Shown: in pieces, positions 1 through 8,681 of the stretch
How the letters are laid out: each line of letters begins with the position of its first letter
How positions within the stretch are numbered: position 1 is the stretch's first letter
NCBI RefSeq assembly: GCF_007970665.1
Contig: NZ_CP042430.1
Location: forward strand, 930,001 to 994,000
Length of the DNA: 64,000 nucleotides
Source of the DNA: Baekduia soli
GTDB lineage: Bacteria > Actinomycetota > Thermoleophilia > Solirubrobacterales > Solirubrobacteraceae
Direction: 5' to 3'
The notes under the pieces: model-generated
Database searches by the model: none
Told to the model about the DNA's origin: nothing
What the model saw: only the letters and a program-made list of their open reading frames with translations
Position numbers and translations under genes: made by a program

Positions 1-2128
1 CGACCGCGGTGAGCCCGAGATCCTCGACGGGTGCCCCCGGCCGTCCGGCGGGGAAGTGGCAGGCCTGCCCGAGCACGGTCCCGCCGTCGCGCAGGGTGGC
101 GACGACGACGTCGTGCGCCGGCGGCCCGAACCTGTAGGCGTAGGCGGCGTCGGCGAACCGGCCCAGAACGCCCTCGGCGTTGCGGCACGCCACGGCGTGG
201 GGCCCGACCTCCAGGTCGGCCTCCGCCTCGGCCACGACGTGCGCGCCGCCGGCCAGCAGCGCGACGTGCAGCCGGGCGCGCAGGGCCTCCGGGCCGTCGT
301 TGGCCACGTGGACGTCCAGCCCACCCAGGCCCTCGTCGGTGATCCAGACCGCGCGCGGCGCCAGGACCCGGCGCAGGTGGGCCAGCGCGACCTTGGGGGC
401 GCCCGTGTGGTCCAGCAGGCCCCAGCCCGCGCCGGGCGCCAGGTCGCGCAGCCACAGCACGATCGCCCCCGCGCACGGCGAGGCCGCGCGGCGCCACTCG
501 CCCATCACCGCGGCCATGACCTCGCCGCCGGCCGTCCGCGACAGCGCGAGGTAGCGCTCGCGGTCGGCGGCCTTCAGCGCGGCGGGATCGACGTCGTGCA
601 GGAGCGCGAGGTAGTGGTCGCGGACGTCGGCGAAGTCCCACGGGGCTCCGACGTCGCGCATGACGCCCTCGCCGTCGGCGACCGGGCCGTCGGGGAGGTT
701 GGCCAGCGCCAGGCACTCCGAGGCGAAGCGCACGCCGGCGCGCCGGGCGTCGTCCAGGGGCCGGCGGTAGCCGCCGACCCCGAAGTAGTTGGCCACGCCG
801 CGCGACGGCTGCATCGGCAGCGCGCCGCCGCAGGGGGCCGAGGGCACGTAGGGGACGTCGGCCCCGGCCCGGGCGGCCAGCGCCGGCAGCAGCTCGCCGA
901 ACAGCTCGCCGCGGCCCAGTGCGGGATCGGCGCCGAACATCGCGGCCTGCTGCTCGACCTCGCTGTTGCCGCACAGCACGGCGAGGCTCGGGCGTCCGGC
1001 CACCCGCGCCAGGGCCTGCTCGGCCTCCTGCACGACCGCGGCCCGGAAGGCCTCGTCGGCGATGGGGTAGTCCAGGTTGGCGAACATGAAGTCCTGCCAG
1101 ACCAGCAGGCCGAGCTCGTCGCACAGGTCGTGGAACGCGTCGTCCTCGTAGACGCCGATGCCGGGGACGCGCACGAGGTTCAGCCCGGCGTCGCGGGCGG
1201 TCTGCAGCGTGGCGCGCAGCCCGTCGGCGGGCACGGGGGTCCACACCGCGCCGCGGGCGAAGACCGGCACGTCGTTGACCGCGAGGTCCAGGCCCTCGGC
1301 GTCGACGTCGTGGCCGGGCCCGGGGGAGAGGTCGCGGAAGCCCGTGCGCCCCAGGCCGGCGACCGTCGTGTCCTGCATGGCGCCGACCACGAGCGCGACG
1401 TCGTGCAGGGCCGGCGCGCCGTGGGTGTGCGGCCACCAGCGCGCGACGGACGGGACGCGCACCGCGCCGTGCAGCGTGCCGTCGGCCTCCAGGGTCAGCG
1501 GGGCGCCGGCGTGCACGCCCTCGGGGCGCCCGACGACGACCGAGACCGGCCCGGGGACCGCCCCGCCGCCGGCCATCCGCACGTGCGCCGCGATCTCCAG
1601 CACGCCGTCGTCGCCCTCCAGGCGCGGGCGCAGCGCCACGTCGGAGACCACGACGCCGCGGCGGCGCACGAGCCACACCGGGCGCCACGGGCCGACGATC
1701 GGCGGCCCGGGCGCGAAGCCCGCCGCTCGCCCCAGGACGGCGGTGCGCACGAAGCGCAGCGCGCCGTCGGCCACGACGCGGGTGCGCCAGCGCTGCCGCG
1801 GGCGCCGGGGCGCCCCGGCGAGCACGTCGGCCAGCGCGCGGCAGTGGATCACCAGCTCGTTGCCGCCGGCGCGCAGCAGGCCGCCGACGTCGGCCTCCAC
1901 GCCGACGAACATCGAGGAGCCCTCGGCCACCCGCGTGCCGTTCAGCGTGGCGGTGAAGACGGTCGCGACGCCGTCGAGGGCCAGGACCACCTCCTCGCCC
2001 GGCGAGGCGGGCTCGGCGTCGAAGCGCAGCCGGAACGTGCGGTCGCAGGCGTCGTCGGGCGGCCCGTCGGCCTCGAAGCCCTCGAGGCGGCGGACGTCGT
2101 GGCCCGGGATGTCAGGCCAGCGCGGCAT
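1..2128 (-). CDS. Glycoside hydrolase family 2 protein, beta-mannosidase-like (3' end outside window)
   Basis: The reverse-strand frame opens at an ATG at 2128 and stays open through base 1, so at least 709 residues are present and the C-terminus is missing. The fold order fits GH2: a jelly-roll sugar-binding domain first, an immunoglobulin-like domain, then a TIM barrel. The acid/base motif CGNSE puts the catalytic Glu near residue 390, and RFASE gives a nucleophile Glu near residue 471. Both match the retaining beta-mannosidase branch. No signal peptide is visible, so it is probably cytosolic. The start overlaps the end of the DUF1839 gene by 17 bases, which ties it to the carrier-protein ligase cluster. 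The true substrate is unknown; beta-mannosidase is a family-level guess. Confidence 0.85.
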   Translation of the reverse strand, partial: MPRWPDIPGHDVRRLEGFEADGPPDDACDRTFRLRFDAEPASPGEEVVLALDGVATVFTATLNGTRVAEGSSMFVGVEADVGGLLRAGGNELVIHCRALADVLAGAPRRPRQRWRTRVVADGALRFVRTAVLGRAAGFAPGPPIVGPWRPVWLVRRRGVVVSDVALRPRLEGDDGVLEIAAHVRMAGGGAVPGPVSVVVGRPEGVHAGAPLTLEADGTLHGAVRVPSVARWWPHTHGAPALHDVALVVGAMQDTTVAGLGRTGFRDLSPGPGHDVDAEGLDLAVNDVPVFARGAVWTPVPADGLRATLQTARDAGLNLVRVPGIGVYEDDAFHDLCDELGLLVWQDFMFANLDYPIADEAFRAAVVQEAEQALARVAGRPSLAVLCGNSEVEQQAAMFGADPALGRGELFGELLPALAARAGADVPYVPSAPCGGALPMQPSRGVANYFGVGGYRRPLDDARRAGVRFASECLALANLPDGPVADGEGVMRDVGAPWDFADVRDHYLALLHDVDPAALKAADRERYLALSRTAGGEVMAAVMGEWRRAASPCAGAIVLWLRDLAPGAGWGLLDHTGAPKVALAHLRRVLAPRAVWITDEGLGGLDVHVANDGPEALRARLHVALLAGGAHVVAEAEADLEVGPHAVACRNAEGVLGRFADAAYAYRFGPPAHDVVVATLRDGGTVLGQACHFPAGRPGAPVEDLGLTAV

Positions 2129-3077
2129 GGAGGCCGCCGGTGGCCTGCTCCCACGCGTCGGCCAGCTCGGCGATGACCGGCCCCGGGTCGAACGCCCGCC
2201 GGCGGGCGAGCTTGAGCGACAGCAGCTTCGTCGCGGCGACGATCCGCGCGGCGGCGTCGGCGACCGGCGCCCCCTCCGGCCCGAGCAGCCAGTCGGCCTG
2301 GGCGCCGATGAGCTCGAAGCCCGAGCCGACCATCCGCACCGTCGCGAACGCGTAGGCGTGGTAGTCCTCGGGCGCGCCGGCCAGCAGCGCGGGCAGGTCG
2401 GCGGCCAGGGCGGCGCCGAAGCGCTCGAACGGGTTGGTCGCCGGGCGCAGCGCCAGGTGGCCGGCCAGCAGCTCGCGGGCCCGCGCGCGCAGCGCGTCGC
2501 CCTCCAGGCGCGGGCCGGCGTCGAAGCGCACGATCTCGGTGTAGGGCGGCAGGATCGCCGGGTCGGCCGGGCCGTCGAGGCGGAACACGCCGCGGTAGTC
2601 GGCGCCCGACAGCTCGTGCAGCCCGGCATTGTGGAAGTAGCGCAGGACCTCGGCCTCGGCGTCGATGGCCTCGACGGCCACCGACGTCTTGACGTGCTCG
2701 CGGTGGTAGCTCGTCGCCGCGGTGTCGGGCAGGTGCCAGGCGTCGAGCTCGACGAGGATCGTGCGGCCCGCCGCGAGCTGGCCGGCGATCTGGCCGGGCA
2801 GGGGCCGGTAGGGCTGCATCTCGTGGATATCGATGCCGAACAGCCGCTCGAGGTCGGCGGGCGCCGGCTTGAAGAACGTCCACTGGTCGCCCTCGAAGTC
2901 CATCCGCACGAGCGAGCCCAGCGCGGCGAGCGGCTCGTCGCCGTGGGCGTGGAGCAGCTCGATGAGCACGTCGGCGTAGCAGTTGGTCTCGACGTAGGTG
3001 CGGTCGCCCGCGACGTGGACCGGGTGCGGGCGGTGGGTCGCCGGATCGGCGCCCAGGAGGGCGATCAGGCCCGCCAC
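2112..3077 (-). CDS. DUF1839 family protein of the carrier-protein ligase cluster
   Basis: This 321-residue protein matches the DUF1839 family, which is known mainly as a neighbour of amino acid:[carrier protein] ligases. It has no recognised catalytic motif. Conserved-looking stretches include YVETNCYADVLIEL near the N-terminus (a Cys in a papain/transglutaminase-like setting) and LDAWHLPDT with YHREH further on. That Cys plus downstream His/Asp would suit a cysteine transferase or peptidase, but this is my inference. The GTG start at 3077 overlaps the ligase stop by 13 bases, indicating translational coupling. A longer in-frame start at 3173 lies well inside the ligase gene and gives an Arg-rich, unlikely N-terminus. 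Confidence 0.8.
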   Translation of the reverse strand: MAGLIALLGADPATHRPHPVHVAGDRTYVETNCYADVLIELLHAHGDEPLAALGSLVRMDFEGDQWTFFKPAPADLERLFGIDIHEMQPYRPLPGQIAGQLAAGRTILVELDAWHLPDTAATSYHREHVKTSVAVEAIDAEAEVLRYFHNAGLHELSGADYRGVFRLDGPADPAILPPYTEIVRFDAGPRLEGDALRARARELLAGHLALRPATNPFERFGAALAADLPALLAGAPEDYHAYAFATVRMVGSGFELIGAQADWLLGPEGAPVADAAARIVAATKLLSLKLARRRAFDPGPVIAELADAWEQATGGLHAALA

Positions 3078-3997
3078 AGCGCGTCGCGCACCTCGGCGGG
3101 CCAGCCGGCGGGGTCGAGCCCGTGGGTCTTCAGGAGCGCCAGCACGATCCGCTCCTGGCCGAAGCCCAGGCACGCGGTGTGCGCCGTCTCACCGGTCGCG
3201 GTCGTGATGCCGTGCAGCGCCCCGAAGTGCTCTTGGTGATAGTTGAACGACGCGATCGCGGTCGGCTCCGGGCCGGCGATCGGGGCCAGGATCTCGAACT
3301 TGAGCTCCTGCTCGCGCTGGCTGGCGGCCATCATGCGGCCGCTGCGCCCGAAGAACGGGTCGCTGGCGACGTCGAAGCGCGCGTCGAGGCCCAGGCCGCG
3401 CAGGAGCTCGAGCGCGCGATCGCGCCAGCCGTCGCGCCAGGCCTGGACGGTGTCGGGCTCGGCGATGCGGACGAGCTCGCGCATGTGGAACATCTGCAGG
3501 CGGGCGGGGTCGCCCGACGGCTCGCGGCGGAACGCGTAGGAGGCGCCCGGGTCGATGATCACGCCGCCGGCCGGCAGCGGGCCGCGGCGGGCGATCGCGG
3601 GGTAGACGGGGTAGCAGACCGCGGGCATGAGCACGAGGTCGCTCATGTGCTGGTGCTCGGACCAGTCCTCGTGGTCGCAGGCCAGGCGCGCCTGCTCCTG
3701 GGCCTGGATCTCGCTGCCCTCGAACGCGTACACCACGCCGGTCAGGTGCGGGAAGCTCTTGAGGTAGCCCGAGGCCTCGAGCTGGCGGCGCGGCAGCACG
3801 GGCGGGAAGCGCAGGGACTCCGCGCCCTCGAACGCGGCGGCCCGCGAGACGTGGTCGTCGAAGCGCGTGCGGATGTCCTCGAACGTCGTGCCGCGTCCGT
3901 AGACGCCCGGCACGCCGCTGGGGATCAGCAGGCCCGCCTCGACGAGCTCGTCGAGGTACTGCGCCTGGTCGGGCGTGGCCTCGCGATAGCCGGCCAC
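3065..3997 (-). CDS. Amino acid:[carrier protein] ligase (SerRS-like)
   Basis: This enzyme activates a small amino acid with ATP and transfers it to the phosphopantetheine thiol of a separate carrier protein. It is a class II aminoacyl-tRNA-synthetase catalytic core with no tRNA-binding arm. The 310 residues fit the family. YLKSFPHL is near residue 78, the motif 2-like FHMRELVRI is at 170-178, and motif 3 CLGFGQERI is at 276-284. C128, E174 and C276 are spaced as expected for the Cys-Glu-Cys zinc site of archaeal-type SerRS relatives. The GTG start at 3997 has AAGGA nine bases upstream and lies two bases after the dehydrogenase stop. Family members charge Gly or Ala; which one is used here cannot be read from the sequence. 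Confidence 0.92.
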   Translation of the reverse strand: MAGYREATPDQAQYLDELVEAGLLIPSGVPGVYGRGTTFEDIRTRFDDHVSRAAAFEGAESLRFPPVLPRRQLEASGYLKSFPHLTGVVYAFEGSEIQAQEQARLACDHEDWSEHQHMSDLVLMPAVCYPVYPAIARRGPLPAGGVIIDPGASYAFRREPSGDPARLQMFHMRELVRIAEPDTVQAWRDGWRDRALELLRGLGLDARFDVASDPFFGRSGRMMAASQREQELKFEILAPIAGPEPTAIASFNYHQEHFGALHGITTATGETAHTACLGFGQERIVLALLKTHGLDPAGWPAEVRDALWRA

Positions 3998-3999
3998 GC

Positions 4000-5169
4000 T
4001 CAGACGTCCTTCGCGATCAGCAGGAGCCCGGCGTTGGTCTGGTGGATGCGCTCGTTGGCGACCATCAGGCACGCCGACATCGAGTCGCGCAGGTGGCGCC
4101 CGACGCTGAACGGCGTGTCGTTCTTGAAGCCGACGATGCCGCACACGCCCATCGCGCCCTGGCAGATGCGGGGCGCCTGCTCGGACGCGGCGATCTTGAG
4201 GTTGTTGAAGCGCAGGATCGCGGCCATCGTCTCCAGGCGCTGGCGGTCGTCGTCGGCGGCCACGAACTCCTCCAGCGCGCCGCGCACCTCGGCGCGCAGC
4301 AGCGAGAGGTCGCTCATGACGTGCGACAGGCGCAGCGCCGCGGGCACGGGCTCCCCGGGCTTCTGGCGGGCCGCGGCGCGCACGAAGGCGCGGGCGCGGT
4401 CGAAGGCGTCGGTGGCGATCCCCAGCCACAGGTGCGCCCACAGCAGGTGCGAGACCGGCACCATCGTCTGGGACATGACCGTCGAGAACGGCGCGGCGAG
4501 GATCTGCTCGGGGCCGAACTCGGCACGCACGACGTAGCCGGGCGAGCAGGTGCCGCGCATGCCCATCGGGTCCCAGGTGCCCTTGGGCTCCAGGGTCGTC
4601 TGGTCCTTGCGCGTGAGCACGACGACCTGGTCGCCGGGCTCGCTGCCGGGGCTCGCCCGCGTCGTGGTCAGCAGGTCGTCGGCGTAGGCGCCGTAGGAGA
4701 CCGTCGGGGCCTGCTTCTCGAAGGTGAGGCGGCCGTCGCCGGCCGGGGTGACGGCGGCGATGGAGCGGCCCATGTCGCCGCCCGTGCCGACCTCGGAGGT
4801 CACCGAGGCGACCAGGCGCTGGCCGGCTGAGAGCTCGCGCAGGTACTCCTCGAACCACGGTGCGCCCTCGAGGTGGCGGACCATCGTGGCGACCTGGATC
4901 TGGTGCATGGCGAAGACCATGGCGCTGCTGCCGCAGCGGCGGCCGAGCTCGAAGCAGGCCTGCGCGATGAGCGCGAAGGGGACGCCGTCGCCGCCCAGGT
5001 GCTCGGGAACGGCGGCCGACAGCGCGCGCGTCTCGCGCAGCGCGTCGAGGGCCTCGGCCGGGAAGCGCGCCTCGCGGTCGACCTCGTCGGCGTGCGGGGC
5101 GGCAACCTCATCGGCGATCCGGCGGATGTCCGCCAGGAAGGCCAGGCCGCGCTCGTCGGCGACGGTCAT
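4000..5169 (-). CDS. Acyl-CoA dehydrogenase-like flavoprotein acting with a carrier protein
   Basis: The 389-residue protein has the three-part acyl-CoA dehydrogenase fold: an N-terminal helical domain, a middle beta domain with SVTSEVGTGGDMGRS, and a C-terminal helical domain ending in ANERIHQTNAGLL. The ANERI Glu sits where the family carries a catalytic base. Its ATG overlaps the carrier-protein stop (ATGA), and the next gene is the amino acid ligase. The natural substrate is therefore more likely an acyl or aminoacyl thioester on that carrier than a CoA ester. Oxidation of a carrier-bound amino acid has precedent in the prolyl-carrier-protein dehydrogenases of pyrrole biosynthesis. The specific reaction here is inferred. 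Confidence 0.85.
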   Translation of the reverse strand: MTVADERGLAFLADIRRIADEVAAPHADEVDREARFPAEALDALRETRALSAAVPEHLGGDGVPFALIAQACFELGRRCGSSAMVFAMHQIQVATMVRHLEGAPWFEEYLRELSAGQRLVASVTSEVGTGGDMGRSIAAVTPAGDGRLTFEKQAPTVSYGAYADDLLTTTRASPGSEPGDQVVVLTRKDQTTLEPKGTWDPMGMRGTCSPGYVVRAEFGPEQILAAPFSTVMSQTMVPVSHLLWAHLWLGIATDAFDRARAFVRAAARQKPGEPVPAALRLSHVMSDLSLLRAEVRGALEEFVAADDDRQRLETMAAILRFNNLKIAASEQAPRICQGAMGVCGIVGFKNDTPFSVGRHLRDSMSACLMVANERIHQTNAGLLLIAKDV

Positions 5170-5411
5170 GCGGCCTGCGCGTCGAGCGCCTGCAGGGCGT
5201 CGGTGATGCTGGCGACGCTCTCGAAGACGCTGCGCTTGAGCATCTCGTCGGGGAACTCGATGTCGAAGGCGTCCTCCAGCGCGAGCATCACGTTCACGCT
5301 GGCGTGCGACGTCATGCCGGCCTCGTAGAGGCTCGCATCGTCGGCCAGGCTGTCGAGGTCCACGGCCAGCCGGCCGTGCTCCTTCAGGATCTCTCGGACT
5401 GCGGCAGACAT
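5166..5411 (-). CDS. Stand-alone acyl/aminoacyl carrier protein
   Basis: An 81-residue, acidic, helical protein of the phosphopantetheine carrier family. The attachment serine is probably S35 in GMTSHASV, followed by the helix VMLALEDAFDIEFPDEML that is typical of carriers. The usual DSL motif of fatty-acid ACP is replaced by TSH. That departure, with the adjacent ligase gene, marks it as the ligase's dedicated partner rather than the housekeeping ACP. The ATG at 5411 is preceded by a weak GGGA. A perfect palindrome lies 34 bases upstream, between this gene and the AcpS gene. The stop overlaps the dehydrogenase start. Confidence 0.9.
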   Translation of the reverse strand: MSAAVREILKEHGRLAVDLDSLADDASLYEAGMTSHASVNVMLALEDAFDIEFPDEMLKRSVFESVASITDALQALDAQAA

Positions 5412-5444
5412 ACATCCCGATTATCGGTGATCGCGCACCACCCT

Positions 5445-5459
5445 TGACCGGACCGGTCA
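5445..5459. promoter_or_regulatory. Perfect palindrome between acpS and the carrier-protein gene
   Basis: The 15-base sequence TGACCGGACCGGTCA has 7-base perfect arms around one central base. It overlaps the acpS stop codon and lies 34 bases upstream of the carrier-protein start. It could be an operator for a dimeric TetR-type regulator controlling the downstream five genes. There is no T-run, so a terminator is less likely. No regulator gene is visible in the cluster. Confidence 0.4.
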
Positions 5460-5834
5460 GAGCTGGGCCACGACCACGGCCGACGCGTACTCCTCCTCGT
5501 GGGTGAGGCTGACCGCCAGGTCGGTGATGCCGGCGTCGCGCGCCAGGGCCGCGGCGTCGTCGTGCAGGGCCAGCTCCACGAAGCCCCCGGGGTCGCGCAC
5601 CACCTCGATCGTGCGCAGGTTGAGCGCCGTGTCGCCGACGCGCAGCACCTTCATCGCGGCCTCCTTGGCGGCGAACCGCGCCGCCAGGCGCAGGGGGTCC
5701 GGCGTGCCGCGCCGGTGGGCGTCGGCGACCTCGGCGTCGGTGTAGACGCGCCGCAGGTAGCGCTCGCCGTGCGCCGCGAGCGCATCGCGCACCTCGCTGA
5801 CGCGGACGAGGTCGATGCCGACGCGGATCCCCAT
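5457..5834 (-). CDS. acpS: Holo-[acyl-carrier-protein] synthase
   Basis: AcpS moves 4'-phosphopantetheine from CoA to the serine of a carrier protein. The 125-residue length is normal. GIDLVRVSEV at residues 5-14 carries the magnesium-binding Asp, and RFAAKEAAMKVL near 48-59 carries the catalytic Glu-Lys pair. LTHEEEYASAVVVA at the end is also typical. It is the first gene of the carrier-protein cluster and presumably primes that carrier; it may also be the only AcpS for fatty-acid ACP. The ATG at 5834 lacks a strong ribosome binding site. The divergent glycosyltransferase gene starts 53 bases away. Confidence 0.92.
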   Translation of the reverse strand: MGIRVGIDLVRVSEVRDALAAHGERYLRRVYTDAEVADAHRRGTPDPLRLAARFAAKEAAMKVLRVGDTALNLRTIEVVRDPGGFVELALHDDAAALARDAGITDLAVSLTHEEEYASAVVVAQL

Positions 5835-5887: not shown

Positions 5888-6979
5888 GTGCGCGTCCACC
5901 TCGTCGATCCCTCCGCGTTCACGCCGCCCTACGACCGCGCGCTGGCGGCGGCGCTGGCCGCCGTGGGCGTCGACGTCACCCTGGTGACCAGCCGCTTCGC
6001 CTACGGGGAGGTCGCGCCGGCGCGCGGTTACGCGGTCGACGAGCGCTTCTACCGCGCCGCGGTCGGCGCGCCGGGCTCGCGGTTGCGCCTGGCGGCCAAG
6101 CTGGCCGGCCACGTGCCGGGCATGCTCGGCTACGCGCGCGCGGCCCGCGCCGCCGACGTGGTGCACTTCCAGTGGCTCACCGTCCAGCCGCTGGACGTGC
6201 ACCTGCTCCCGCGCGGGCGGCCCGTCGTGCTCACCGCGCACGACGTCCTGCCGCGCGAGCCGCGCCGCGGCCAGCTCGCCGCCCAGCGGCGGCTCTACGG
6301 GCGCGTCGACCACGTCGTCGTGCACTCCGCCCACGGCCGCGACCGCCTGACGGGCGAGCTCGGGCTCGATCCGGCGCGCGTCACCGTCATCCCGCACGGC
6401 GCGTTCACCGATCTGGCCGCGCTGCCCGCGCGGCTGCCGCCCGAGCTGGCCGCCGCACCGCCCGACGTGCCGGTCGTGGCGCTCACGGGCCTCCTGCGTC
6501 CCTACAAGGGCCTCGACGTCCTCCTGGAGGCCTGGCAGGGCATGGGGGGTGCCGAGCTGTGGATCGTCGGCCTGCCGCGCATGCCGCTGCCCGTGCGCCT
6601 GCCCCCCGGCGTGCGGCTGGTCGGGCGCTTCGTGGCCGACGCCGAGCTGGCCGGCGTGCTGCGCCGCGCCGACCTCGTCGTGCTCCCCTACCGCGAGATC
6701 GACCAGTCGGGCGTGCTCTACGCCGCCCTGGGTCTCGGACGCCCGCTGCTGCTCAGCGCGGTGGGGGGCTTCCCGGAGGTCGCCGCCGCGGGGGCCGCCG
6801 AGCTCGTGGAGCCCGGCGACCCCGCCGCCCTGCACGCCGCGCTGCGCGCGCTGCTGGACGACCCGGCCCGCCGCGCCGGCCTGGCCGCGGGCGCGGCGCA
6901 CGCCGCCGCCACGACGTTCTCCTGGCCGGAGGCGGCCCGGCGCCACCGCGCCCTGTACGGCATGCTGACCGGCTCGTGA
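5888..6979 (+). CDS. Glycosyltransferase family 4 (GT-B fold)
   Basis: A 363-residue GT-B glycosyltransferase. The N-terminal acceptor domain starts directly with VHLVDPSAFTPPYDRAL, where other family members have a Gly-rich loop. The donor half carries VTVIPHGAF, GLLRPYKGLDVLLEAW and LPYREIDQSGVLYAALGLG, the last matching the E-x7-E-like nucleotide-sugar site. The GTG start at 5888 is the first possible one after the divergent acpS. It is the first of four genes joined by 1- to 4-base overlaps, ending with a phosphoglycosyltransferase and an ATP-grasp protein, so it probably adds a sugar to a lipid-linked glycan on the cytoplasmic face. Confidence 0.85.
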   Translation: MRVHLVDPSAFTPPYDRALAAALAAVGVDVTLVTSRFAYGEVAPARGYAVDERFYRAAVGAPGSRLRLAAKLAGHVPGMLGYARAARAADVVHFQWLTVQPLDVHLLPRGRPVVLTAHDVLPREPRRGQLAAQRRLYGRVDHVVVHSAHGRDRLTGELGLDPARVTVIPHGAFTDLAALPARLPPELAAAPPDVPVVALTGLLRPYKGLDVLLEAWQGMGGAELWIVGLPRMPLPVRLPPGVRLVGRFVADAELAGVLRRADLVVLPYREIDQSGVLYAALGLGRPLLLSAVGGFPEVAAAGAAELVEPGDPAALHAALRALLDDPARRAGLAAGAAHAAATTFSWPEAARRHRALYGMLTGS

Positions 6980-8079
6980 GGAAGGCGATCTTCTGGACCT
7001 CTGCGGCCCTGCTGGCCTGGGCGCAGGCGGGCTACGGCGTGGCCCTGGCGGCGCTGCGCCGTGGCCCGGTGGCCTCCGCCTACCCCGTCGCGCCGCCGGA
7101 GGACGACGCGGCGCTGCCGTCGGTCGCGCTCATCGTGCCCGCGCACGCCGAGCGCGACGTCATCGCCGCGCGGATCGCCAACGCCCGTGCGCTGGACTAC
7201 CCCCGCGACCGGCTCGAGATCGTCGTGGCCTGCGACGGGTCGACGGACGGGACCGTGCAGGCCGCGCGCGCCGCGGGCGCCGACGTCGTTCTCGACCTGC
7301 CGCGCGGCGGCAAGGTCCGCGCCCAGGACGCAGCGGTGGCGCGCACCGATGCCGAGGTGGTGGCCTTCTCCGACGCCAACGCGCTGTGGAAGCCCGGCGC
7401 GCTGCGGGCGCTCGTCGCCCCGCTGGCCGATCCGCGCGTGGGCTACGTCTGCGGGCGCGTGAGGTTCGTCAACCCCGAGGGCGGCTCCAACCAGGAGGGC
7501 GTCTACTGGCACTACGAGATGTTCCTGCGCGAGCGCGAGAGCGCGCTGTGCTCGGTCACCGCCGGCAACGGGGCGATCAACGCGGTGCGCCGCGCGGCCT
7601 ACGTCGAGGTCGACCCGGTGATGGGCCACGACCTCAAGCTGCCGTTCACGCTCGTGCGCGCCGGCTGGCGCTGCGTCGAACAGCCGCTGGCGCGGGCCAC
7701 GGAGCGCATGGTCCCCGACGTCGAGGGCGAGGCCGCCCGCAAGCGGCGGATGATGAGCCACGCATGGGCGATCGTCCTGCACGGCGGCCTGCTGGACCCG
7801 CGCGGCTGGCCGCCGCGCTACCTGGTGATGATGGTCAGCCACCGCTGGCTGCGCTACTTCGGCCCGTTCCTGCACCTCGCCGCCCTGGCCACCGCGCCGC
7901 GCGCGCTGCGCCGGCTGCAGCTGGCCGGGATCGCCCTCGCGCTCGTGCCCGCCCGCGTGCGGCCGCTGCTGCTGGCCCGCTACTACGTGCTGACGCAGGC
8001 TTCGATCGCGCTCGGGCTGGCCGACCACCTGCGCCACGGGACCGCGGCGGGCTGGGACCCGCCCGAAGGCACACGCTGA
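6976..8079 (+). CDS. Membrane glycosyltransferase family 2
   Basis: A 367-residue GT-A enzyme with an N-terminal membrane segment (residues ~5-25) and more hydrophobic helices near 290-345. SVALIVPAHAERDVI opens the nucleotide-binding domain, CDGSTDGT follows, and FSDANALW provides the DxD-type metal site. The usual ED motif is represented by GHDLKLPF. The layout resembles processive or polyprenyl-linked sugar transferases. Its GTG overlaps the previous TGA (GTGA), so it is translated with the GT4 enzyme. Donor and acceptor sugars are unknown. Confidence 0.85.
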   Translation: MRKAIFWTSAALLAWAQAGYGVALAALRRGPVASAYPVAPPEDDAALPSVALIVPAHAERDVIAARIANARALDYPRDRLEIVVACDGSTDGTVQAARAAGADVVLDLPRGGKVRAQDAAVARTDAEVVAFSDANALWKPGALRALVAPLADPRVGYVCGRVRFVNPEGGSNQEGVYWHYEMFLRERESALCSVTAGNGAINAVRRAAYVEVDPVMGHDLKLPFTLVRAGWRCVEQPLARATERMVPDVEGEAARKRRMMSHAWAIVLHGGLLDPRGWPPRYLVMMVSHRWLRYFGPFLHLAALATAPRALRRLQLAGIALALVPARVRPLLLARYYVLTQASIALGLADHLRHGTAAGWDPPEGTR

Positions 8080-8681
8080 TGGCCGAGCCCCTGCGCCGCG
8101 TCTTCGACGTCCTGGTCGCCGCGACCGTGCTGGTGATCACCTCGCCGCTGCTGGCCGCCGCGATCGTGGCGATCCGCCTGGAGTCGCCCGGGCACCCGAT
8201 CTACCGCCAGCGCCGCGTGGGCCGCGACGCCCGCCCGTTCGACGTGCTCAAGCTGCGCACCATGGTCTCCGGGGCGGAGAAGATGGGCGCCGGGCTGGCC
8301 GTCGACGACGGGGACTCGCGGATCACCCGCGTCGGCGCGCTGCTGCGCCGCACGTCGGTCGACGAGCTGCCCAACCTCGTCAACGTCCTGCGCGGCGAGA
8401 TGTCGATCATCGGCCCGCGCCCGACGGTGCCCGTGCAGGTGACGCAGTACAGCGACCGCCAGCGCGGGCGCCTGGCGCTCAAGCCGGGCATCACGGGCTG
8501 GGCACAGGTCAACGGCCGCGCGTCGCTGCCCTGGCCCGAGCGCATCGAGCTGGACCTCTGGTACGTCGAGCACCGGTCCCTGTGGCTGGACCTGCGGATC
8601 CTGTGGCTGACCGCGCGGATGCTCGTCACCGGCCACGGCCTCTACAAGGGGGACACCGGCGGATGGGTGGATCAGGCATGA
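8079..8681 (+). CDS. Undecaprenyl-phosphate sugar phosphotransferase (monotopic phosphoglycosyltransferase)
   Basis: This 200-residue enzyme should start glycan assembly by moving a sugar-phosphate from a nucleotide sugar to a polyprenyl phosphate. It is the short PglC-type, consisting of just the catalytic domain. A re-entrant helix (residues ~8-30) is followed by YRQRRVGRDARPFDVLKLRTM, a basic signature. RTSVDELPNLVNVLRGEMS with the Asp-Glu pair comes next, then GPRPTVP and PGITGWAQVNGR. The ATG shares one base with the previous stop (TGATG), and the next gene overlaps by four bases. This gene makes the operon a lipid-linked glycan pathway rather than loose transferases. Confidence 0.93.
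   Translation: MAEPLRRVFDVLVAATVLVITSPLLAAAIVAIRLESPGHPIYRQRRVGRDARPFDVLKLRTMVSGAEKMGAGLAVDDGDSRITRVGALLRRTSVDELPNLVNVLRGEMSIIGPRPTVPVQVTQYSDRQRGRLALKPGITGWAQVNGRASLPWPERIELDLWYVEHRSLWLDLRILWLTARMLVTGHGLYKGDTGGWVDQA

What the first reader, a model, noticed from the sequence alone, without database searches (positions are those of the whole stretch)
1..5834. Amino acid:[carrier protein] ligase cluster with its own AcpS, oxidase, DUF1839 and GH2 enzyme
Seen: six same-strand genes, mostly overlapping, encode acpS, a carrier protein with a non-standard TSH serine site, an acyl-CoA-dehydrogenase-like flavoprotein, a SerRS-like ligase with an intact Cys-Glu-Cys set, DUF1839, and a GH2 hydrolase. 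Known: homologous ligases of Bradyrhizobium and Agrobacterium load Gly or Ala onto a separate carrier, but the end product is not known to me. Inferred: amino acid is loaded, oxidised on the carrier, then passed by DUF1839 to an acceptor, possibly a sugar; the GH2 enzyme may act on the resulting glycoside. The hydrolase makes an aminoacylated or glycosylated product attractive.
Basis: partly seen in the sequence, partly recalled or inferred. Interest (0 to 1): 0.85.

Follow-up and report, generated by a model that had tools for sequence, protein, structure and literature searches.

The report
Gene cassette joining amino acids to sugars
Six neighbouring genes, found together across at least seven bacterial phyla, look like a small assembly line that loads an amino acid onto a carrier protein, alters it and attaches it to an amine, probably an amino sugar; the idea was published as a prediction in 2010 and the product is still unknown, but the predicted fold of the key enzyme now supports it and makes it testable.

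Summary
On the minus strand lie acpS, ACP, an acyl-CoA-dehydrogenase-like flavoprotein (ACAD), an amino acid:[carrier protein] ligase with intact Cys-Glu-Cys, DUF1839 and a GH2 enzyme that runs past the window's first base. They are not chance neighbours. All 17 intact DUF1839 loci in the order adjoin the ligase. Of 43 well-flanked loci from other genomes, 42 carry ACP, ACAD and ligase, 42 carry GH2, 21 carry AcpS. GH2 tracks DUF1839, not the ligase: it is absent from 14 genomes lacking DUF1839, eight of which have a ligase. A seventh gene often follows: a tandem alpha/beta hydrolase with a conserved Cys nucleophile. The predicted DUF1839 structure (pLDDT 95) matches CcbD (Z 19.0, 285 of 318 residues), AziU3 and CtaG. 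CcbD transfers carrier-bound proline to an amino sugar, so DUF1839 is most likely the carrier-dependent amide-forming enzyme. New here: the CcbD-like match, the strict DUF1839-GH2 coupling, the seventh gene, and an alanine-linked variant. The oxidation chemistry, acceptor and product remain unknown; the polysaccharide link is strong only in the window's family.

The parts
5457..5834 (-). acpS, phosphopantetheinyl transferase (125 aa)
   Evidence: TIGR00516 63.9 bits over cut-off 59.8; PF01648. Linked to the cassette in 21 of 43 well-flanked DUF1839 loci. One of three PF01648 hits in the genome.
5166..5411 (-). Aminoacyl carrier protein (81 aa), attachment serine S35 in GMTSHAS
   Evidence: NF005480 111 bits, cut-off 72; best solved relatives are the Agrobacterium carrier Atu2571 (2jq4) and 4h2w_C, E 6e-20; S35 in 73/73.
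4000..5169 (-). Acyl-CoA-dehydrogenase-fold flavoprotein (389 aa), presumed to oxidise the carrier-bound amino acid
   Evidence: PF02771 50.2 bits; AF2 pLDDT 88, Z about 37 to dehydrogenases, ColB1 and flavin monooxygenases alike; Glu-base positions read D351 and S240.
3065..3997 (-). Amino acid:[carrier protein] ligase, SerRS-like, Zn set C130/E161/C278 (numbering of P0004)
   Evidence: NF005479 406 bits over cut-off 357; 4h2w/3mey Bll0957 E 2e-84; Zn set and D215 in 74/74. GTG start inferred from sequence.
2112..3077 (-). DUF1839, papain-like carrier-protein-dependent condensing enzyme, nucleophile C30 (numbering of P0005)
   Evidence: PF08893 300 bits; AF2 pLDDT 95.3; CcbD Z 19.0, AziU3 18.7, CtaG 16.6; N29, C30, K127, H146 in 75/75, T/S at 128 in 75/75. 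GTG start inferred.
1..2128 (-). GH2 glycoside hydrolase, beta-mannosidase-like, apparently cytoplasmic; continues 236 bases beyond the window
   Evidence: PF22666 43.3 bits; beta-mannosidase 6byc E 2e-45; catalytic Glu E390 in 42/43 and E471 in 43/43; no signal-peptide-like N terminus in 43/43.
8094..8627 (+). Neighbouring polysaccharide gene: bacterial sugar transferase (PF02397), with GT4 at 5888-6979 and GT2 at 6976-8079; context, not part of the cassette
   Evidence: PF02397 208 bits, GT4 and GT2 Pfam hits; sugar transferase within about 10 kb of DUF1839 in 4/4 near-complete genomes of the family.

Best explanation
The cassette is a carrier-protein assembly line for an amide-linked, modified amino acid. 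AcpS converts the ACP to its holo form (inferred). The SerRS-like ligase adenylates a small amino acid, glycine or alanine most likely, and loads it on the ACP (shown for relatives, not here). The flavoprotein oxidises or hydroxylates the carrier-bound amino acid (inferred). DUF1839 takes the aminoacyl group onto Cys30 and transfers it to the amine of an acceptor, most likely an amino sugar, forming an amide (inferred from predicted fold and conserved residues). The cytoplasmic GH2 enzyme cleaves or remodels the glycoside that is DUF1839's substrate or product (inferred from strict co-inheritance). In this genome the acceptor is probably an intermediate of the neighbouring polysaccharide locus (weakest step).
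For: Co-inheritance: 17/17 intact DUF1839 loci in the order adjoin the ligase; 42/43 well-flanked loci elsewhere carry ACP, ACAD and ligase, and 42/43 GH2; 63 of 80 loci hold all five genes in cis, over at least seven phyla. Where genes are unlinked they are still in the genome: ligase in 4/4, GH2 in 3/3 at 43-51% identity. GH2 tracks DUF1839: in the order all 16 DUF1839 loci with room have it, and none of 6 ligase loci without DUF1839 do; it is absent from 14 DUF1839-negative genomes, eight of them ligase-positive, save one 22.6-bit hit. DUF1839 fold: CcbD Z 19.0 over 285 residues, next unrelated row Z 8.1; Foldseek matches below E 0.001 are AziU3, CtaG and CcbD only. CcbD moves carrier-tethered proline to the amino group of a thiooctose by a Cys ping-pong mechanism (PMC12945683). 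Ligase and GH2 active sites are intact. Polysaccharide genes flank the cassette.
Against: No sequence match ties DUF1839 to CcbD, CtaG or BtrH; the case rests on a predicted fold, and a shared fold does not prove a shared reaction. The usual catalytic His site reads Thr/Ser in DUF1839 by published modelling, with His moved to the third position (PMC10318531). CcbD accepts varied amines, so the sugar is not proven. Only 10/44 loci of 15 kb or more show polysaccharide-type neighbours in a crude search, and one of two unrelated actinobacterial genomes has no sugar transferase nearby. The ligase also occurs without DUF1839 and GH2 in other cassettes.
Confidence: 0.58

Rival explanations
1. The same chemistry serves a soluble small molecule rather than a surface glycan: the cassette makes a glycosylated amide metabolite, as in lincosamides or butirosin, and GH2 trims or unmasks it.
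For: All cassette proteins look cytoplasmic. Most loci have no obvious polysaccharide neighbours. The fold relatives CcbD, CtaG and AziU3 all belong to antibiotic pathways. A Priestia variant pairs the ligase trio with an ATP-grasp ligase, a thioesterase, alanine permease and alanine racemase, a natural-product-like set.
Against: In the window's family a polysaccharide sugar transferase lies within about 10 kb in 4/4 near-complete genomes; glycosyltransferases, flippase and O-antigen ligase homologues flank the window cassette; in one Rhizobium the seventh gene is fused to a Wzx-like flippase.
Confidence: 0.25
2. DUF1839 is a hydrolase or editing thioesterase that frees the oxidised amino acid from the ACP, and GH2 acts on an unrelated glycan.
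For: Papain-like folds are mostly hydrolases; the His/Thr swap makes the mechanism unsure. A Priestia variant has a true thioesterase in the equivalent operon.
Against: Closest folds are carrier-dependent biosynthetic enzymes over the whole chain, far above peptidases. Strict DUF1839-GH2 co-inheritance argues that a glycoside is involved.
Confidence: 0.1
3. The ligase and DUF1839 form a nonribosomal peptide-like pathway with a peptide product; the glycoside hydrolase is incidental.
For: Carrier-bound aminoacyl intermediates were first proposed to feed nonribosomal peptide synthesis (as summarised in PMC2922099).
Against: No NRPS, condensation domain or second ligase in the cassette; GH2 is not incidental.
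Confidence: 0.05
4. Chance neighbours: acpS and GH2 merely adjoin a ligase-ACP pair.
For: AcpS is linked in only 21/43 loci.
Against: GH2 in 42/43 loci and present elsewhere in the genome when unlinked, absent from DUF1839-negative genomes.
Confidence: 0.01

Closest known systems
Amino acid:[carrier protein] ligases (Bradyrhizobium Bll0957) and their carriers (Agrobacterium Atu2571), with the cassette prediction around Atu2574 in PMC2922099
   Same: Same ligase family, same Zn set, same carrier type; the 2010 note lists carrier, redox enzyme, the uncharacterised ORF (Atu2574) and a glycosidase, and predicts amide ligation to an amino sugar.
   Different: That prediction had no structural or quantitative test; the window copy adds its own acpS and lies in a Thermoleophilia-type actinobacterium.
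CcbD/LmbD, lincosamide condensing enzymes
   Same: Predicted fold of DUF1839 matches CcbD over 285 residues (Z 19.0); a Cys nucleophile and a carrier-bound aminoacyl donor are shared features.
   Different: No sequence similarity found; CcbD works with an NRPS-type adenylation protein and a Cys-His-Glu triad, whereas DUF1839 sits beside a SerRS-like ligase and has Thr/Ser at the usual His position by published modelling.
CtaG (closthioamide) and AziU3 (azinomycin)
   Same: Same predicted fold (Z 16.6 and 18.7).
   Different: Different substrates; no glycoside hydrolase or SerRS-like ligase known to me in those pathways.
BtrH, acyl-ACP:aminoglycoside acyltransferase of butirosin
   Same: Papain-like, carrier-dependent, amino sugar acceptor; side chain modified on the carrier first (own knowledge).
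   Different: DUF1839 does not match the BtrH_N profile.
Dlt (D-alanyl teichoic acid) and Alm (glycyl lipid A) systems
   Same: Logic: amino acid loaded on a small carrier, then moved to a surface glycan.
   Different: Different ligase fold and different transferase; none of their transferases among the six genes.
Exosortase-A-associated hydrolases 1 and 2 (TIGR03100, TIGR03101)
   Same: The seventh gene resembles the two fused (hydrolase 2 then 1).
   Different: Below both curated cut-offs; N-terminal half lacks the nucleophile.

Membership tests
Amino acid:[carrier protein] ligase (NF005479) | Profile score over curated cut-off | tested here: met
   406 against 357 bits
Amino acid:[carrier protein] ligase (NF005479) | Zn-binding Cys-Glu-Cys and catalytic core without tRNA-binding domain | tested here: met
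   C130, E161, C278 in 74/74; about 310 aa aligned to Bll0957 end to end
Amino acid:[carrier protein] ligase (NF005479) | Loads an amino acid on its carrier protein | not testable with these tools
   Needs enzyme assay
DUF1839 (PF08893) | Profile score over cut-off | tested here: met
   300 against 22.5 bits
CcbD/CtaG/AziU3-type carrier-dependent papain-like enzymes | Shared fold over the whole chain | tested here: met
   AF2 model, Z 15-19 over 267-285 of 318 residues, next unrelated row 8.1
CcbD/CtaG/AziU3-type carrier-dependent papain-like enzymes | Invariant Cys nucleophile at the start of the first long helix | tested here: met
   C30 in 75/75; helix 30-41
CcbD/CtaG/AziU3-type carrier-dependent papain-like enzymes | Catalytic His in second triad position | tested here: inconclusive
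   T/S128 there by published modelling; H125 and H146 are conserved nearby; no coordinates at hand to measure
CcbD/CtaG/AziU3-type carrier-dependent papain-like enzymes | Amide formation from a carrier-bound acyl group | not testable with these tools
   Needs enzyme assay
BtrH_N (PF14399) | Profile match | tested here: not met
   Only DUF1839 hit at E 0.1
Glycoside hydrolase family 2 | Family domain over cut-off and two catalytic Glu | tested here: met
   PF22666 43.3 against 27 bits; E390 42/43, E471 43/43
Beta-mannosidase | Substrate specificity | not testable with these tools
   Nearest solved relatives are beta-mannosidases; specificity cannot be read from this
Acyl-CoA dehydrogenase | Glu catalytic base | tested here: not met
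   E376-type position is D351 (D 36/50, G 10/50); E254-type position is S240, from alignment to SCAD
Flavin monooxygenases of the acyl-CoA dehydrogenase fold (DszC, KijD3 type) | Closer to these than to dehydrogenases | tested here: inconclusive
   Profile scores 88 against 91 bits, Z values tied
AcpS | Profile over cut-off | tested here: met
   TIGR00516 63.9 against 59.8 bits
Dlt/Alm aminoacyl transfer systems | NRPS-type adenylation ligase and dedicated membrane or lipid A transferase | tested here: not met
   Ligase is SerRS-like and no such transferase among the six genes
Exosortase-A hydrolase 1/2 (seventh gene) | Score over curated cut-off | tested here: not met
   109 bits against 202.75 and 168.45

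The most novel reading that the evidence does not exclude
A dedicated pathway spread over at least seven phyla decorates an amino sugar of a cell-surface glycan or glycolipid with an oxidised glycine- or alanine-derived amide. It uses a SerRS-derived ligase, a CcbD-like DUF1839 condensing enzyme and an obligate intracellular GH2 trimming enzyme, often with a Cys-type tandem alpha/beta acyltransferase. That would be a glycan modification route distinct from Dlt, Alm and MprF.
Probability: 0.33. Interest if true: 0.78.

Novelty: new member of a known kind. Interest (0 to 1): 0.58.

Why it matters
The ligase-carrier pair has been known biochemically since 2010 (Mocibob et al., as cited in PMC2922099 and PMC9437257), and I found no report of its product. 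If DUF1839 is a CcbD-like amide-forming enzyme, the missing acceptor step becomes a single in vitro assay. The obligate GH2 partner says the acceptor is probably a glycoside. The answer would apply to many soil, plant-associated and aquatic bacteria, including rhizobial symbiosis plasmids where the cassette lies beside nif genes.

Tried and rejected
DUF1839 sequence and profile searches against solved structures gave nothing; only fold comparison did. The original 2010 ligase paper was not held, so its amino acid specificities are from memory and are not used as evidence. The first all-against-all neighbour search timed out and was redone with longer ORFs; several of its clusters are antisense ORFs and were ignored. 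A general polysaccharide link was tested and is not supported outside the window's family by a simple search: 10/44 loci. A PF02397 link was absent in one of two unrelated actinobacterial genomes and 17 kb away in the other. Structure search on the flavoprotein could not separate dehydrogenase from monooxygenase. Rfam search of the first 12 kb found nothing. Papers on exosortase hydrolases and rhizobial polysaccharides gave no lead.
Full report
Observation. All are on the minus strand in the order acpS, ACP, flavoprotein (ACAD), ligase, DUF1839, GH2. ACP/ACAD, ligase/DUF1839 and DUF1839/GH2 overlap; ACAD and ligase are 2 nt apart; acpS is 45 nt from ACP. The ligase and DUF1839 starts are GTG by inspection. 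GH2 runs off the window; its full length is 787 aa. Family assignments pass curated cut-offs for acpS, ACP, ligase, DUF1839 and GH2; the flavoprotein passes for its N-terminal domain only.

Is it more than chance? In 151 genomes of the order, 22 have the ligase and 18 have DUF1839. In 17 of the 18 DUF1839 lies directly beside the ligase; the eighteenth is cut by a contig end. Fetching the surroundings showed ACP, ACAD and ligase with DUF1839 in 17/17. GH2 follows in 16, one of them cut by a contig end (L055); in the seventeenth (L052) the contig ends right after DUF1839. Across the phylum, 3/396 genomes have DUF1839 and all three have the ligase within 3 kb. A scan of named genomes gave 235 relatives of DUF1839, of which the best 80 were kept. 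These come from Actinomycetota, Acidobacteriota, Pseudomonadota, Myxococcota, Verrucomicrobiota, Planctomycetota and Gemmatimonadota. Among the 43 loci with at least 6 kb on both sides, 42 carry ACP, ACAD and ligase, 42 carry GH2 and 21 carry AcpS. Over all 80 loci, many cut short by contig ends, 63 hold all five genes in cis. The sample is biased to relatives of this window, and MAG labels are not all reliable.

DUF1839 and GH2 are the tightest pair. In the order, every DUF1839 locus with room has GH2 (16/16) and none of six ligase loci without DUF1839 has it (Fisher p about 1e-5, computed on 17 against 6, counting L052). In four genomes with an unlinked or incomplete cassette the ligase is elsewhere in the genome, and in three loci without a neighbouring GH2 a homologue of 43-51% identity lies elsewhere. 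In 14 DUF1839-negative genomes, eight of them ligase-positive, no such GH2 exists apart from one 22.6-bit hit. So the ligase-carrier pair is a general module, and DUF1839-GH2 is one way of using it.

Other uses of the module. A Priestia megaterium plasmid has acpS, ACP, ACAD and ligase followed by a transporter, an ATP-grasp ligase, a thioesterase, alanine permease and alanine racemase, without DUF1839 or GH2. This points to alanine as the loaded amino acid there (inference). A Tsukamurella plasmid has ligase, ACP and a phosphopantetheinyl transferase among glycosyltransferase and polysaccharide genes, without ACAD or DUF1839.

A seventh gene. A tandem alpha/beta hydrolase follows GH2 on the same strand within 400 bases in 43 of 64 loci with room, and lies somewhere in 52 of 64. 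It also accompanies the ligase in several loci without DUF1839. It resembles exosortase-A-associated hydrolases 2 and 1 fused, below both cut-offs. Its N-terminal half lacks a nucleophile (mostly Arg or Gly at the elbow), while the C-terminal half has GxCxG with Cys in 40/41 and a following His in 40/41. A Cys nucleophile fits acyl transfer (inference). In one Rhizobium it is fused to a Wzx-like flippase domain. The window's genome has it unlinked, about 1.5 kb from another sugar transferase.

DUF1839. A 2023 survey placed it in the papain-like superfamily with a Cys-(Thr/Ser)-His arrangement (PMC10318531). In 75 sequences N29, C30, K127 and H146 are invariant and position 128 is always Thr or Ser. 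The AlphaFold2 model has pLDDT 95.3 and pTM 0.92. Foldseek's only matches below E 0.001 are AziU3, CtaG and CcbD. The second aligner gives CcbD Z 19.0 (rmsd 3.5, 285 residues), AziU3 18.7, CtaG 16.6, and then a drop to 8.1. CcbD takes carrier-bound proline on its Cys and hands it to the amino group of a thiooctose; its carrier docks on a C-terminal Arg cluster (PMC12945683). DUF1839 has an invariant Arg (R289) near its C terminus, which could serve the same purpose (inference). No sequence search links DUF1839 to these proteins, so what is supported is 'works like CcbD', not 'is a CcbD'.

Flavoprotein. Its closest curated families and solved relatives are a mix of acyl-CoA dehydrogenases and flavin monooxygenases. 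In the alignment to short-chain acyl-CoA dehydrogenase the Glu base position is D351, kept as Asp in only 36 of 50, and the alternative position is S240. The model ties with dehydrogenases, with ColB1, which dehydrogenates assembly-line-tethered cysteine, and with monooxygenases. Dehydrogenation and hydroxylation both remain open.

GH2. Its relatives are beta-mannosidases. Both catalytic Glu are kept, and there is no sign of a signal peptide in 43 sequences. It therefore probably acts inside the cell.

Acceptor. In the window's family the cassette sits in a polysaccharide locus with a sugar transferase, GT4, GT2, flippase and O-antigen-ligase homologues. The sugar transferase lies 5.1, 6.1, 9.5 and 10.1 kb from DUF1839 in the four near-complete genomes, with 6-7 copies per genome. 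The expected chance is 2-3% each, but three of the four are one genus. Elsewhere the link is weak: 10/44 loci in a crude search, 17 kb or absent in two other actinobacteria. A sugar amine as acceptor is inferred from GH2 and CcbD; that it belongs to a surface polysaccharide is likely only here.

What was known. A note added in proof in 2010 (PMC2922099) lists carrier, redox enzyme, the conserved ORF (example Atu2574), a glycosidase and liposaccharide genes around this ligase. It predicts amide ligation of a mono-oxygenated amino acid to a surface amino sugar, with Atu2574 as the ligase. The paper does not name DUF1839; that Atu2574 is DUF1839 is inferred from its place in the operon. The additions here are the CcbD-type fold, the quantified DUF1839-GH2 coupling across phyla, the Cys-type seventh gene with a flippase fusion, the alanine-linked variant, and the lack of a conserved Glu base in the flavoprotein.

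Verdict. The cassette is real, widespread and functionally coherent, and is already known as a prediction. Most likely it is a carrier-dependent aminoacyl-amide pathway onto an amino sugar. It is worth pursuing because one assay on DUF1839 could now settle a question open since 2010.

Noticed in passing
L144:9311-15403 (Rhizobium acidisoli plasmid pRapFH23a): The cassette lies directly downstream of nifHDKENX and fdxB on a symbiosis plasmid; there the GH2 gene is in pieces in several frames, while ACP, ACAD, ligase and DUF1839 are intact.
   Followed up: partly
L149:15815-19123 (Rhizobium sp. NLR16a p3): A single 1103-aa protein joins a Wzx-like flippase domain to the tandem alpha/beta hydrolase, flanked by two GT4 genes.
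   Followed up: partly
L147:8139-16686 (Priestia megaterium plasmid): acpS-ACP-ACAD-ligase with ATP-grasp ligase, thioesterase, alanine permease and alanine racemase, next to a ComX-like locus: probably an alanine-derived dipeptide-type product.
   Followed up: partly
L148:8068-10900 (Tsukamurella tyrosinosolvens plasmid): Ligase, ACP and a phosphopantetheinyl transferase among polysaccharide genes without ACAD or DUF1839.
   Followed up: no
L061:2145-15712 and L153:1150-13301: Genomes with two ligase-carrier sets within about 10 kb of each other.
   Followed up: no
window:8582-9670: ATP-grasp enzyme (PylC-like N domain, ATPgrasp_Ter) next to the sugar transferase, possibly another ligation step in the polysaccharide locus.
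   Followed up: no
L106, L110, L111 (Ramlibacter MAGs): DUF1839 and GH2 are divergently paired without the ligase nearby; the ligase is elsewhere in each genome.
   Followed up: yes
L065, L071, L088: Contigs labelled Burkholderiales, Chloroflexi and Chlamydiae carry cassettes of 61-66% DUF1839 identity to the window, like Solirubrobacterales; probably misbinned or mislabelled MAG contigs.
   Followed up: no
L151 (G000:C1:1470250-1471845): The window's genome has the Cys-type tandem alpha/beta hydrolase unlinked from the cassette, about 1.5 kb from another sugar transferase gene.
   Followed up: partly
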